Program-made: the position numbers and the translations under genes
Origin: Gammaproteobacteria bacterium
GTDB lineage: Bacteria > Pseudomonadota > Gammaproteobacteria > Steroidobacterales > Steroidobacteraceae
DNA: 64,000 nucleotides
Assembly (NCBI GenBank): GCA_003134045.1
Contig: PLAH01000161.1
Coordinates: 21,464 to 85,463 of the forward strand
Reading direction: 5' to 3'
The notes under the pieces: model-generated
What the model was told of the DNA's origin: nothing
The model's database searches: none
The model's input: the letters and a program-made list of their open reading frames with translations, nothing else
Part shown: in pieces, positions 14,274-21,085 of the stretch
How the letters are laid out: every line of letters begins with the position of its first letter
Position numbering within the stretch: position 1 is the stretch's first letter

Positions 14274-14580
14274 CTATGAGCATTGACTGGAAGTCTCAAA
14301 CCGCGACTTAGTGACATCCGGCAACAATAACGCGACAGCACCGAGCAAGGGCACGTATGCGCAGAGATTGAAGACTGACTCAATCCCCAGGCGATCCGCC
14401 AGCGCGCCGAGAATGGCGGCGCCGATGCCGCCGAATCCGAAGGCGAGCCCGAAGAAGAGACCAGACACCGTCCCGATATGATTAGGCCTAGCGGCATTGC
14501 TGAGGCGCCTTCGAGAATCGGCCCTATCGTGCTTGCGAGAAGTAGACCGGACTGATTTTCGCGAGTATTGAAATGGCAAC
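14274..14580 (-). pseudogene. C-terminal fragment of an MFS transporter (Fsr-like)
   Basis: The ORF includes GTVSGLFFGLAFGFGGIGAA, LGALADRLGIESVF and a final hydrophobic LLGAVALLLPD. This matches the last two or three helices of fosmidomycin-resistance-type MFS transporters. An adjacent frame holds LLASTIGPILEGASAMPLG, so a frameshift is present and the rest of the gene is missing. It is a remnant beside the GNAT gene. Confidence 0.55.
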
Positions 14581-14582
14581 GA

Positions 14583-15038
14583 TCACGGTGGTGGGCTGAT
14601 CTGTGGGGCAGCTGCCATTGGGTTGCCGCCATTGGTAATAGGCAGCTCGATAATTTCAATCCCGTCTGCTAGATGTTGACCGGTCGGCTGCCATCCCAAT
14701 GCTCGGTAGAATCGGTAGGCTGGCAGGGTGGAATCGGAAGGTGCCTCGAGCCAAATTCGTTGAACACCGTCAGCAAGTAGGAGATCGACGACTAGCGAGA
14801 GAAGCTTCCGTGCGATGCCTTGACGGCGATAGCTCTGATCGACCGAGAGCCCAATAATCTCTCCGGTGGCGGAGTTCCCTATGCAGTGGCCGACTACTCG
14901 GCCATCGTGTACGCACTCCCTGAACTTGACCCGCCCACTCAGCACGTCTGCCGCAAAAGGTTGATCCTTCCCCGTGACGGCACGGAGCATTTGAATCCTG
15001 GCTTCGGTCAATTGAGTTGGGCGAAATTCCAGATCCAT
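14583..15038 (-). CDS. GNAT-family N-acetyltransferase
   Basis: The start was chosen at 15038 (MDLEFRPTQLTEARI) because GGAGG lies 6 bp upstream; the track start at 15113 adds 25 residues of low-complexity sequence. The 151-residue product has the acetyl-CoA loop SYRRQGIARKLLSLVV after the IIGLSVDQ strand, then YRFYRALGWQPTG. The substrate cannot be inferred. It closes a cassette next to the IS21-like unit. Confidence 0.85.
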   Translation of the reverse strand: MDLEFRPTQLTEARIQMLRAVTGKDQPFAADVLSGRVKFRECVHDGRVVGHCIGNSATGEIIGLSVDQSYRRQGIARKLLSLVVDLLLADGVQRIWLEAPSDSTLPAYRFYRALGWQPTGQHLADGIEIIELPITNGGNPMAAAPQISPPP

Positions 15039-15209
15039 CGTTGCCTCCGCCGGACTGATCAGGCTGCCAGTTGTAGCCGGAGCCTCTGACGCGTCCGCGT
15101 CAGACGGCGTCATGTTCTTCCTGAATTATCCACGCAACCCCATAAGTGGTTGCCCTCGTTGCCGTAGCCGTGCAGTGGCGATTTCGATCAATATAAGCGA
15201 GGGCCCGGG

Positions 15210-15221
15210 CACGATTTGGCC
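15210..15221 (+). repeat. Left subterminal repeat of IS21-like unit
   Basis: CACGATTTGGCC is the inverted partner of GGCTAAATCGTG at 18791-18802 (11 of 12 positions). Both lie just outside the four-gene block. The true ends of the element were not fixed. Confidence 0.4.
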
Positions 15222-15297
15222 ATCTACCCCGGGCCCCCGGCGTTACGGTTGCTTGTGGGCGAGCCGTTCAGCATAGCCTTTATGCCTGCTCGCCCCG

Positions 15298-15745
15298 GTG
15301 CTGTCCAGCGCCCGGTGGGAGGGCGCGTGGTCGGTGCAGGATGCGGTTCGGGAGTTCGATTGCCGGCGTTGCGGGCGGCGAACCTGCGTGTGTCGGCCGT
15401 GTGACCGGGGCCAAGAGTACTGCGGGGAGAGCTGCGCCGAGCTCAGTCGGCAGGCGTATTTACGAGTAGCTCGCGCCCGCTACCAAAAGACTCGGCGCGG
15501 CGCACACTTACACGCGGCTCGGCAACGGCGATACCGGGCACGGTGCGCGGCGCCGGCGGGTGCGACAGCCAAAATAGTGACGGATCTGGGTTCCGCGGCA
15601 GCACGCCTCGTCGGCACAGTGGTGGCCCATGAGGAAGCCGCCGAGAGGACCGATGATCCCGTCTGTGCACTGCCTGCCGGCGTCGCGACGCGCTGTGACT
15701 TCTGCGGCGCGAGCTTCCCTGATCCGGATCCTGAGGTAGGCGCGG
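15298..15745 (+). CDS. Small Cys-rich protein of IS21-like unit (3' end undefined)
   Basis: The GTG-started frame encodes DCRRCGRRTCVCRPCDRGQEYCGESC, a dense Cys array that could bind zinc. A basic stretch YQKTRRGAHLHAARQRRYRAR follows, then CDFCGASFPDP. I associate such proteins with ParB-domain and IS21-like transposase genes in proteobacteria, without known function. No stop occurs in this frame until 18006, where it is in frame with the IstA-like gene. The given 3' end is the ParB start and is a guess. Confidence 0.5.
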
Positions 15746-16612
15746 GTGCAGCTGGAACTGCATCAACTGAACCTGCGCTACGAGCGGCTGCGCAAACGCA
15801 GCCCACGGGAGGAACGGGCGCTGTTGGTCTCGCTGTCGGAGATCGGCCAGCAACTGCCGGTGGTGGTGATCGAGGAGACGCCGCAGTTCATCCTGATCGA
15901 CGGCTACAAGCGGGTGCGGGCCATGAAGCGCCTGGCGCGCGACTCGGTGCGCGCGACGAGCTGGCAGATGGCGGAAGCCGAGGCGCTGCTGCTGGAGCGG
16001 AGCCTGCGCCGCGGCAGCGAGGATGCGCTCGATCAAGCCTGGTTGCTGGCGGAGTTGCAGGAACGATATCAATGGTCGCTCGAGGAGTTGGCGCGGCGCT
16101 TCGAACGCAGCAAAAGCTGGGTGAGTGGCCGGCTCGCGCTGCTGCAGGCCTTGCCGGTCTCGATCCAGGAACAAATCCGTGTCGGGACCTTGAGTGCGCA
16201 CGCGGCGATGAAGTATCTGGTGCCGCTCGCGCGCGTGAACGCGGCGGCGGCGCAAGCCCTGGCCACGGCGTTGACGCCGCTCAAGCCCACGTCGCGACAA
16301 GTCGAAGCGCTGTATGCCGGCTGGCAAGCCGGCACCGAGCGCACGCGCGAGCTCATTGTGCAGAGTCCGCAGATCTACCTCCAAGCACAGGCGACCCGCG
16401 AGTCGCCGCCGCCGGCGGCGGCGCAGCGCTTCCTGCAGGATCTCGGGGCATTGGGCGGCATCGCGCGCCGTGCCCACCGGGTGCTCGAGGGCCGCCTGCT
16501 CGCCGAGTTGCAGGAGAGCGAACTGAACGAAGTCACTACCGCGTTCGCGCGCGCGAACGGCGAGGTGCAACGACTCATCCAGCGCTTCGAACGGGAGATC
16601 CGACCATGCTAG
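15746..16612 (+). CDS. ParB-nuclease-domain protein of IS21-like unit
   Basis: 288 residues with a GTG start. The N-terminal ParB/Srx-like domain shows LLVSLSEIGQQLPVVVIEE, then FILIDGYKRVRAMKRL, equivalent to the ParB box I region. A KorB/ParB-type HTH follows: YQWSLEELARRFERSKSWVSGRLALLQ. It resembles chromosome-partition ParB but is encoded 7 bp inside the start of an IstA-like transposase gene. It may therefore be a transposition accessory or target-selection factor; that role is inference. Confidence 0.75.
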   Translation: MQLELHQLNLRYERLRKRSPREERALLVSLSEIGQQLPVVVIEETPQFILIDGYKRVRAMKRLARDSVRATSWQMAEAEALLLERSLRRGSEDALDQAWLLAELQERYQWSLEELARRFERSKSWVSGRLALLQALPVSIQEQIRVGTLSAHAAMKYLVPLARVNAAAAQALATALTPLKPTSRQVEALYAGWQAGTERTRELIVQSPQIYLQAQATRESPPPAAAQRFLQDLGALGGIARRAHRVLEGRLLAELQESELNEVTTAFARANGEVQRLIQRFEREIRPC

Positions 16613-18006
16613 ACGAAGACACCCGCACGGCGATCTTGCGCCTGCACGTGCAAGGCCACGGTAGCCGCAAAATCTCGCGGGCCTTAGGGATCGCGCGCGA
16701 CTCGGTGCGCCGCATCATCCGTTCCGGCAGCGCCACCGTGCCGCCGCTCCTGCGCAAGGAACGGGCGGAGGCGTGGCGCGATGAGATCTTGGAACTGTAC
16801 ACCCGCTATGAAGGACACCTCGGGCGCGTGCACGACGCGCTCAGCGATCTCGGTGTCACCATCTCGTATCCGGCGTTGACCGCGTTCTGCCGTCGCCACG
16901 GCATCGGCCATACCCCGCCGCCGCCGGCGGGGCACTATCTGTTCAGCGCCGGTGAGGAGATGCAGCACGACACGAGCCCGCATCGGGCGAACATCGCTGG
17001 CACCGAGACCCGGGTGCAAACCGCTTCGCTCGTGCTGTGCTACTCGCGCATGATCTTCTTCCAGCACTATCCGCGCTTCACCCGCTTCGAGTGCAAGGCG
17101 TTCCTCGCCGCTGGCATAGACTACTTCCACGGATCGGCGAGCCGCTGCATGGTGGATAACTCGAACGTGGTCGTCGCCGCCGGCACCGGAGCGATGATGA
17201 TCCCGGCACCCGAGATGGCCGCCTTTGCGGCGCGCTACGGCTTCGTGTTCATCGCGCACGAAAAAGGCGATGCGAACCGCTCGGCGCGAGTCGAGGCGCC
17301 GTTCCATCGTATCGAGACCGCCTTCCTGACCGGCGAGACGTTCGCCGACTGGCGTGCCTTGAACGCCCGAGCTCGGGCCACCTGCGAGACCTGGAACGCC
17401 AAGTACTCATCGAAGCTGCATGCCAGCCGCCGTGAGCTCTTCGCCGCCGAACAGGCCCACTTGAAACCCCTGCCGCTGCACGTGCCGGAGGTCTACCAAC
17501 TCTGCAACCGCATCGTCGATGCGGAAGGATATGTGAACGTGAACCGGATACGCTACTCCGCCCCGTATCGACTTATAGGGCGAACACTCGAAGTGCGCGA
17601 GACGCTCGAGCGGGTCGTCCTGTATGACGGACCGCGGCGGGTGGCGAGCCACGCGCGGGTGCATGGACCCTTCGATACCCGGGTCACCGATCCGGCACAT
17701 CGACCCCCGCGCGGCCAGGGACTGGTGCGCCACCGGCCACCGGCGCCCGAGCTGATCGAGATCTTGCAGATCGACTCGCGCATGACCTGTTATCTGAACG
17801 CCTTCAAAAGCCACGTCGGTGAGCGGCGCGCACCGCTACGGCGTCTCCTCTCGATGCTGCGTGACTATCCGCGCGAACCCTTCCTCGCCGCCATCGCCGA
17901 TGCCGAACGGTATCGGCTCTTCGATCTGGACCGGCTCGAGAAGATGGTACTGCGGCGGATCGCAGATGATTACTTCCCGCTCGATCTGGAGCCCGACGAT
18001 GAATGA
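16606..18006 (+). CDS. istA: IS21-like transposase IstA
   Basis: 466 residues starting MLDEDTRTAILRLHVQG at the ATG overlapping the ParB stop. The N-terminal HTH is GSRKISRALGIARDSVRRII. The DDE core is readable: D in MQHDTSPHR, D in CMVDNSNVV, and E in ARVEAPFHRIE. The C-terminal beta-barrel region has YVNVNRIRYSAPYRLIG. All catalytic acids are present, so the enzyme may be active. The stop overlaps the istB ATG (ATGAATGA). Confidence 0.85.
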   Translation: MLDEDTRTAILRLHVQGHGSRKISRALGIARDSVRRIIRSGSATVPPLLRKERAEAWRDEILELYTRYEGHLGRVHDALSDLGVTISYPALTAFCRRHGIGHTPPPPAGHYLFSAGEEMQHDTSPHRANIAGTETRVQTASLVLCYSRMIFFQHYPRFTRFECKAFLAAGIDYFHGSASRCMVDNSNVVVAAGTGAMMIPAPEMAAFAARYGFVFIAHEKGDANRSARVEAPFHRIETAFLTGETFADWRALNARARATCETWNAKYSSKLHASRRELFAAEQAHLKPLPLHVPEVYQLCNRIVDAEGYVNVNRIRYSAPYRLIGRTLEVRETLERVVLYDGPRRVASHARVHGPFDTRVTDPAHRPPRGQGLVRHRPPAPELIEILQIDSRMTCYLNAFKSHVGERRAPLRRLLSMLRDYPREPFLAAIADAERYRLFDLDRLEKMVLRRIADDYFPLDLEPDDE

Positions 18007-18724
18007 AGATCTCGAGCAGTTGCTGCAGAATCTCAAGCTCAAAACCATCGCCGCGCGCTTCGATGAGATGCTCGCCGGGGCCGAACAAAACGGCACCCCC
18101 GTACAGACTCTGGTGACCCAGTTGCTGCGTGCCGAGTGGCATGCGCGCCAGGAAAAGGCACTGCAGGCGCGCATCGACCGTGCCGACTTCCCCGAGCCGT
18201 GGACCCTGGAGTCGTTCCCGTTCAAAATGCAAAAAGGCGTCAAGGAACGCCAGATCCGCACCTTCGCCGAACTTGACTTCATCCCCAAGGCCGAGAACAT
18301 CGTCTTCATCGGCGAGACCGGCGTCGGGAAAACGGGGTTGATGGTGAGCCTTGCCCGCAAGGCCGTGCAGAACGGCTACCGGGCGTTGTTCATCACGGCA
18401 CAGGATCTGCTCGATGACATGTATGCCTCGCTCGCGGACCGATCGTCGCGGCGCTTGCTCAAGACGCTCGCCAACGTCGATGTACTGGCCATCGATGAGC
18501 TGGGCTACGTCAACATCAAGCCCGAGCAGACCAACATCTTCTTCAAACTCATGGAGGAGCGGCATCGACGTAAACCAACCTTGATCACGACGAACCTACC
18601 CTACTCAACGTGGCCCGACTTCCTCGCCAATCCAGCCCTCACCAAGGCGCTCTTGAGTCGCCTCCGCGAGCGTTGCCACACCATCATCATCGACGGTCCC
18701 TGCATCCGCCCTCAGACCGGCTGA
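17999..18724 (+). CDS. istB: IS21-like helper ATPase IstB
   Basis: 241 residues from the ATG at 17999. Walker A is GETGVGKT and Walker B is VLAIDELGYV; sensor I is TLITTNLPYSTW, the IstB/DnaC family signature. IstB is the AAA+ partner that selects target DNA and activates IstA. Coupling to istA by an 8-bp overlap is normal for IS21. The ORF is intact and full length. Confidence 0.9.
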   Translation: MNEDLEQLLQNLKLKTIAARFDEMLAGAEQNGTPVQTLVTQLLRAEWHARQEKALQARIDRADFPEPWTLESFPFKMQKGVKERQIRTFAELDFIPKAENIVFIGETGVGKTGLMVSLARKAVQNGYRALFITAQDLLDDMYASLADRSSRRLLKTLANVDVLAIDELGYVNIKPEQTNIFFKLMEERHRRKPTLITTNLPYSTWPDFLANPALTKALLSRLRERCHTIIIDGPCIRPQTG

Positions 18725-18790
18725 TCGAATCCATCCTCCGTTCAACCGCGTTCGATCCGACCCTTACGCACCTCGCTGCGCACGATCACG

Positions 18791-18802
18791 GGCTAAATCG
18801 TG
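18791..18802 (-). repeat. Right subterminal repeat of IS21-like unit
   Basis: GGCTAAATCGTG is the reverse complement of CACGATTTAGCC, matching the left repeat at 15210 in 11 of 12 positions, 67 bp beyond the istB stop. It supports a mobile unit of about 3.6 kb that includes all four genes. Confidence 0.4.
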
Positions 18803-18892
18803 AAACCCGATGGGTCTACCTCAGACGAGTAAACCCGGACTGGTTCTGACGAGCGCCGCAGCGGCATTGCGGGCCGCCACACGGCTTACACG

Positions 18893-18945
18893 TCAATCAG
18901 ACAGCTTTTCGACGACGCCTCAGCCATCCATGTTTGCCGCCGGCG
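18893..18945 (-). pseudogene. Remnant of a BrnA antitoxin 3' end
   Basis: cagacagcttttcgacgacg and cctcagccatccatgttt match, with changes, the 3' end of the intact brnA gene at 20810 (cagacggctttcgacagcg, cctcagccatacgtgtct), and similarity continues past the stop. It is a leftover of a second BrnA-type module cut off next to the IS21-like unit. The rest of 18803-19296 holds no recognised gene; a triple aagttc repeat lies at 19104-19121. Confidence 0.5.
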
Positions 18946-20745: not shown

Positions 20746-20809
20746 ACAACACCCGGACTCCTGATGCTCTTGGCGGCATTGCCGGCCAGTCGCACAGTTG
20801 GCTGTTCGA

Positions 20810-21085
20810 TCAGACGGCTTTCGACAGCGCCTCAGCCATACGTGTCTGCCAGCCAGGACCCGTGGCCTTCCAGCGCGCCAATGTCTCCGGTGGCAAACGC
20901 AGAGAGATCGATGTACGCGCCCTGCCCGACTTCGGTCGCCCGCGAGGCTTCATCATTTTGGCTGCGGTTGCGGCGCCGAAGATTTCCGGCAACACCTCGC
21001 GCGCCTTGCGAGCGCGTGCAAAGGTCTCCTTCGTCCAGGCCGGGTTCTCGCGATCGACCTTCCCGGGATTAGGCTTGCGCTTCAT
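20810..21085 (-). CDS. brnA: BrnA-family antitoxin
   Basis: 91 residues, normal for BrnA. It has the basic region RGRPKSGRARTSISLRLPPE, which forms the ribbon-helix-helix DNA-binding fold, and the conserved end GPGWQTRMAEALSKAV. It follows brnT with a 17-bp overlap, giving the usual toxin-first order. BrnA binds BrnT through its N-terminal part and represses the operon. Confidence 0.9.
   Translation of the reverse strand: MKRKPNPGKVDRENPAWTKETFARARKAREVLPEIFGAATAAKMMKPRGRPKSGRARTSISLRLPPETLARWKATGPGWQTRMAEALSKAV

What the first reader, a model, noticed from the sequence alone, without database searches (positions are those of the whole stretch)
15210..18802. IS21-like unit with two extra genes: Cys-rich protein and ParB-domain protein
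The istA/istB-like genes are intact (DDE acids, Walker A/B) but preceded by a ParB-nuclease/HTH protein overlapping the istA start and by a Cys-rich small protein. Classic IS21 has only istA and istB. Tight overlaps and inverted CACGATTT(G/A)GCC words just outside all four genes argue that they move as one unit. A ParB-like factor in a transposon could bind target or end sequences, or use CTP as a switch.
Basis: partly seen in the sequence, partly recalled or inferred. Interest (0 to 1): 0.72.

Follow-up and report, generated by a model that had tools for sequence, protein, structure and literature searches.

The report
IS21-type transposon subfamily carrying ParB
This is a jumping gene of a known type (IS21) whose branch carries an extra DNA-binding gene related to chromosome-partition proteins, plus a small cysteine-rich gene; its exact ends could be mapped and the same package recurs in distant bacteria, so the extra genes look like part of the machine and not like passengers.

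Summary
The element is 14500-18861 (4,362 bp), with CTGAGGCGC...GCGCCGCAG ends and an 8-bp target duplication, CGGCATTG. Both ends carry two 24-bp-spaced direct repeats, as IS21 ends do. It holds a GNAT gene (probable cargo), a cysteine-rich gene, parB, istA and istB. The same core order recurs in several proteobacterial families and on a Desulforapulum plasmid. All 12 ParB-linked IstA proteins form one branch (100/100) apart from 12 other IS21 transposases; one of the 12 keeps only a ParB remnant. parB overlaps istA in all seven elements measured. ParB is therefore most likely a dedicated subunit of the transposition machinery; whether it serves targeting, end binding or regulation is not shown. 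CTP use is doubtful because the motifs are degenerate. Unexpectedly, the cysteine-rich gene is a swappable module: its second type comes with conserved TTGCAAAGA repeats upstream of the next gene, also in unrelated serine-recombinase elements with two ParB-like genes. Other IS21 lineages carry related cysteine-rich genes too. New variant of a known kind.

The parts
14492..14499 (.). left copy of the 8-bp target duplication CGGCATTG
   Evidence: exact match to 18862-18869 directly outside matching ends
14500..14548 (+). left end: tip CTGAGGCGCCT, then two direct repeat units (14511-14524 and 14535-14548)
   Evidence: aligned with ends of L005, L006, L008, L010, L011 and pHRM2a
14583..15113 (-). 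GNAT acetyltransferase gene, probable cargo, found only in this copy
   Evidence: Pfam Acetyltransf_1 1.3e-14; no homologue in the other loci
15201..15236 (+). hairpin GGGCCCGGG...CCCGGGCCC upstream of the cysteine-rich gene
   Evidence: stem conserved in L008-L010 with different loops
15334..15735 (+). cysteine-rich small basic protein (type cys1); start GTG inferred from relatives, no stop of its own
   Evidence: conserved in L008-L010; third codon positions diverge most
15573..15587 (+). short DNA word conserved inside the cysteine-rich gene (AATAGTGACGGATCT; AATAGTGACGCATCA in L008)
15746..16612 (+). ParB-like protein (N-terminal ParB/Spo0J region plus HTH_ParB)
   Evidence: Pfam HTH_ParB 8.3e-07; profile match to Spo0J/Noc/ParB structures 6.5e-16
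16606..18006 (+). istA, DDE transposase
   Evidence: NCBIfam transpos_IS21 3.4e-40, below cutoff; IS5376 IstA structures 8e-24
17999..18724 (+). istB, AAA+ helper ATPase
   Evidence: Pfam IstB_IS21 9.4e-55; NCBIfam NF038214 211.9 bits, cutoff 200
18813..18861 (-). right end: tip CTGCGGCGCTC (read inward on the minus strand) with two direct repeat units
18862..18869 (.). right copy of the target duplication CGGCATTG

Best explanation
The locus is a 4,362-bp transposon of a deep IS21-like branch whose core is cysteine-rich gene - parB - istA - istB. Shown: ends, target duplication, gene set, clade and the parB-istA overlap. Inferred: ParB is made in step with IstA and works as a DNA-binding partner of the IstA-IstB complex, most likely by tying it to a DNA site (target choice, end synapsis or self-avoidance). 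Inferred: the small cysteine-rich basic protein is a nucleic-acid-binding regulator whose gene, with its repeats, forms a cassette that controls the operon downstream. The GNAT gene is cargo picked up by this copy.
For: Ends and duplications in three elements: window CGGCATTG, L005 GGAGAAACG, pHRM2a GTGGAGGC. End repeat layout shared across two phyla. All seven family-type ParB matches found in other genomes (137 bits or more) lie directly upstream of istA. ParB-linked IstA are one branch, 100/100. The one full-length family IstA without an intact ParB has a ParB remnant. The parB stop overlaps the istA start by 7-53 bp in seven elements. TTGCAAAGA repeats go with the cys2 gene in both IS21 and serine-recombinase elements.
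Against: No experiment; the role of ParB rests on association and gene overlap. The ParB model was poor (mean pLDDT 59.7). No binding site for ParB was identified: the repeats follow the cysteine-rich gene type, not ParB. The genome holds one copy plus a solo right end, so present activity is unknown.
Confidence: 0.6

Rival explanations
1. ParB is only a transcriptional repressor of the operon, like KorB-type regulators, and takes no part in the transposition reaction.
For: HTH_ParB is the best-supported domain and a KorB profile also matches weakly; gene overlap also fits an autoregulated operon.
Against: ParB follows one IstA clade while the cysteine-rich gene upstream is exchanged; no operator that follows ParB type was found.
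Confidence: 0.3
2. The ParB protein works as a CTP switch: it loads on a parS-like site in the element and slides to recruit IstB.
For: Profile similarity to CTP-binding ParB and Noc; Glu and Arg of ENxQR kept in close relatives.
Against: GERR is GYKR, Asn and Gln of ENxQR are replaced, and distant members lose more; no parA in the element and no parS-like site found.
Confidence: 0.1
3. ParB and the cysteine-rich gene are passenger genes that happen to be carried by the element.
For: Insertion sequences with passenger genes are known in general (own knowledge); the GNAT gene here looks like one.
Against: Conserved order and overlap across two phyla, one IstA clade, decay and not clean absence in the exception.
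Confidence: 0.07

Closest known systems
IS21 family (IS21, IS5376)
   Same: DDE IstA with IstB AAA+ helper, overlapping genes, terminal inverted repeats each made of two direct repeats (PMC10122671, PMC11208146)
   Different: adds parB and a cysteine-rich gene; IstA falls below the NCBIfam IS21 cutoff; duplications of 8-9 bp against 5 bp reported for IS5376
IS21-like elements with a cysteine-rich gene and a ~130-aa protein (L060, L061, Caballeronia pSBC1_4 L064)
   Same: cysteine-rich gene with internal direct repeats (GTTACAAGA), then a small protein, then istA
   Different: no ParB; separate IstA branch
Serine-recombinase elements with two ParB-like genes (Methylibium RPME01 L067, Variovorax RA8 L065, G660 L110)
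   Same: type 2 cysteine-rich gene with TTGCAAAGA repeats; ParB-like genes downstream
   Different: unrelated recombinase; different ParB proteins
TIGR-TasA loci with tasParB (PMC12045711)
   Same: a ParB-like gene in an operon with another DNA-targeting system
   Different: RNA-guided system without an IS21 transposase; analogy only

Membership tests
IS21 family | IstA DDE transposase | tested here: met
   D122, D184, E230 invariant; profile matches IS5376 IstA structures 8e-24
IS21 family | IstA passes the NCBIfam IS21 cutoff | tested here: not met
   138.4 bits against cutoff 160
IS21 family | IstB AAA+ helper | tested here: met
   IstB_IS21 9.4e-55; NF038214 211.9 bits, cutoff 200
IS21 family | inverted ends with two direct repeats each | tested here: met
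   24-bp spaced units at both ends
IS21 family | only two genes between the ends | tested here: not met
   parB, a cysteine-rich gene and a GNAT gene besides istA and istB
IS21 family | target duplication of the prototype's length (5 bp in IS5376) | tested here: not met
   8, 9 and 8 bp in three elements
IS21 family | transposition activity | not testable with these tools
   needs a laboratory assay
ParB CTPases | ParB N-terminal region and HTH_ParB | tested here: met
ParB CTPases | CTP motifs GERRxR and ENxQR | tested here: inconclusive
   GYKRVRA and ERxLR in close relatives; less kept in distant ones
ParB partition systems | ParA partner in the same unit | tested here: not met
   no parA among the element's genes
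Tn7-like transposons | TniQ/TnsD target selector in the unit | tested here: not met
   none of the element's five proteins shows a TniQ match in Pfam

The most novel reading that the evidence does not exclude
Several unrelated transposon types (IS21 with ParB, IS21 with a ~130-aa protein, serine recombinase with two ParB-like proteins) share an exchangeable control module: a small cysteine-rich protein gene with its own set of spaced DNA repeats, which sets when or where the element moves together with a ParB-like or other DNA-binding partner.
Probability: 0.3. Interest if true: 0.75.

Novelty: new variant of a known kind. Interest (0 to 1): 0.5.

Why it matters
IS21 is a simple model for ATPase-controlled transposition, and how IstB chooses targets or avoids its own element is open (PMC11208146). 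A branch that has kept a third, co-translated DNA-binding protein gives a direct way to test target choice. The exchangeable cysteine-rich module, if confirmed, would be a shared control layer across unrelated transposons.

Tried and rejected
CTP switch: motifs degenerate. TTGCAAAGA repeats as ParB sites: they follow the cysteine-rich gene type, not ParB. Structured RNA: no Rfam match at E 0.1. Viral or phage origin: no relative of ParB in viral contigs or phage records. AlphaFold models of ParB and of the cysteine-rich protein too poor to lean on; Foldseek still put Spo0J/Noc/ParB first for ParB. Empty site for the window: the insertion lies between a brnA-like remnant and an MFS remnant, so no intact gene tests it. 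A 902-codon frame joining the cysteine-rich frame to istA: stop position not conserved in relatives, so treated as chance in GC-rich DNA. Eight literature searches found no description of ParB in IS21 elements in the held library; ISfinder itself could not be consulted.

Full report
Observation. The ORFs are as described: a cysteine-rich frame, a ParB-like gene at 15746-16612, istA at 16606-18006 and istB at 17999-18724. Pfam and NCBIfam give HTH_ParB for the second, IS21 transposase for the third (below the NCBIfam cutoff) and IstB_IS21 for the fourth. A profile of the ParB proteins matches Spo0J, Noc and ParB structures (best 6.5e-16), and the IstA profile matches IS5376 IstA (8e-24).

Ends. 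A scan for close ParB relatives gave seven loci. L005, L006 and L007 carry near-identical copies (98.7-99.2%) of one element in three MAGs, which fixes its left end; L005 and L006 also fix the right end. The same ends lie in the window at 14500 and 18861, with CGGCATTG on both sides; L005 has GGAGAAACG, and the element on Desulforapulum plasmid pHRM2a has GTGGAGGC. For the window alone, an end match plus duplication this good was reached in 6 of 200 shuffles; it is the homologous ends in other elements that make chance unlikely. Every aligned end reads CTnnGGCGC followed by two repeat units 24 bp apart, the layout reported for IS21 ends (PMC10122671). The reported duplication for IS5376 is 5 bp; here it is 8-9 bp. 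L006 shows no duplication, so that copy may be rearranged.

Contents. The left part holds a GNAT gene not found in the other loci. L008 is a 3,939-bp version with only the four core genes. L005 and pHRM2a have a further small gene after istB, annotated as CHC2 zinc finger in pHRM2a.

Family. ParB profile searches found the same order in G246 (same class) and in G571, G465, G540 (two copies), G611 and G503 (elsewhere in the phylum). An IstA survey of 399 genomes separates family members (full-length 497-835 bits, fragments 161-322) from ordinary IS21 transposases (145 bits or less). The members without an intact ParB are G489, which keeps a ParB remnant, and G544, which is itself a fragment. 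In a tree of 24 IstA proteins the 12 ParB-linked ones (the G489 remnant included) form one branch with 100/100 support; the midpoint root is for drawing only. parB overlaps istA in all seven elements measured.

Cysteine-rich gene. The window's type (cys1) also occurs in L008-L010 and, without ParB, in IS21 elements L072 and L073. L005, though 74% identical in ParB, carries a different type (cys2) shared with distant members, and it is nested among cys1 rows on the IstA tree, so the gene has been exchanged. In all eight ParB-type IS21 loci of the second kind (in L051 the gene itself was not detected), two to four copies of TTGCAAA(A/G)A stand upstream of parB. The first two are 81 bp apart in four of them, and the last is 77-86 bp before parB in six; expected counts are about 0.001-0.014 per 600 bp. 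In L005, L023 and L024 the last copy lies after the cys2 stop, so the constraint is on DNA or RNA and not only on protein. The same gene and repeats occur in serine-recombinase elements with two ParB-like genes. In 359 genomes the 18-mer with at most one mismatch was found in 11, mostly in these elements or in what look like remnants; G672 looks like a chance match. The window's own element lacks this repeat.

Mechanism. What is shown is anatomy, clade and the geometry of gene overlap. That ParB is a working part of the transposition complex, and that the cysteine-rich protein regulates the operon through repeats, is inference. CTP use is not supported by the motifs.

Limits. The surveys sample one genome per species and at most 400 genomes per search; several loci are MAG contigs, some only a few kilobases long. 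The insertion site in the window is an intergenic relic. For L005 the insertion seems to lie in the gene of a bacterial toxin-antitoxin toxin, so its flanks were not joined. The names cys1, cys2 and cys3 are labels of this report only. ISfinder was not available, so some members may already be listed there.

Noticed in passing
L005:5767-5924; L023:3883-4043; L024:412-581; L067:5291-5390: Spaced direct repeats TTGCAAAGA(T)GGACGCG inside and after the type 2 cysteine-rich gene, shared by IS21-ParB and serine-recombinase elements.
   Followed up: partly
L060:3207-3294 (-); L061:2514-2583 (-); L064:2395-2541: A second IS21 lineage has a cysteine-rich gene with GTTACAAGA repeats and a ~130-aa protein before istA.
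   Followed up: partly
L002:1520-1585 (own genome, contig C47): A solo right end of the same element type without the genes.
   Followed up: partly
15298-18006: The cysteine-rich frame stays open through parB and into istA (902 codons).
   Followed up: partly
18870-18938 and 20773-20850: The right flank resembles the 3' part of a BrnA-like antitoxin gene that is open nearby (20810-21085, minus strand).
   Followed up: partly
L005:9028-9342; L023:7245-7781: A fifth small gene after istB (CHC2 zinc finger in pHRM2a) in some members, absent from the window element.
   Followed up: partly
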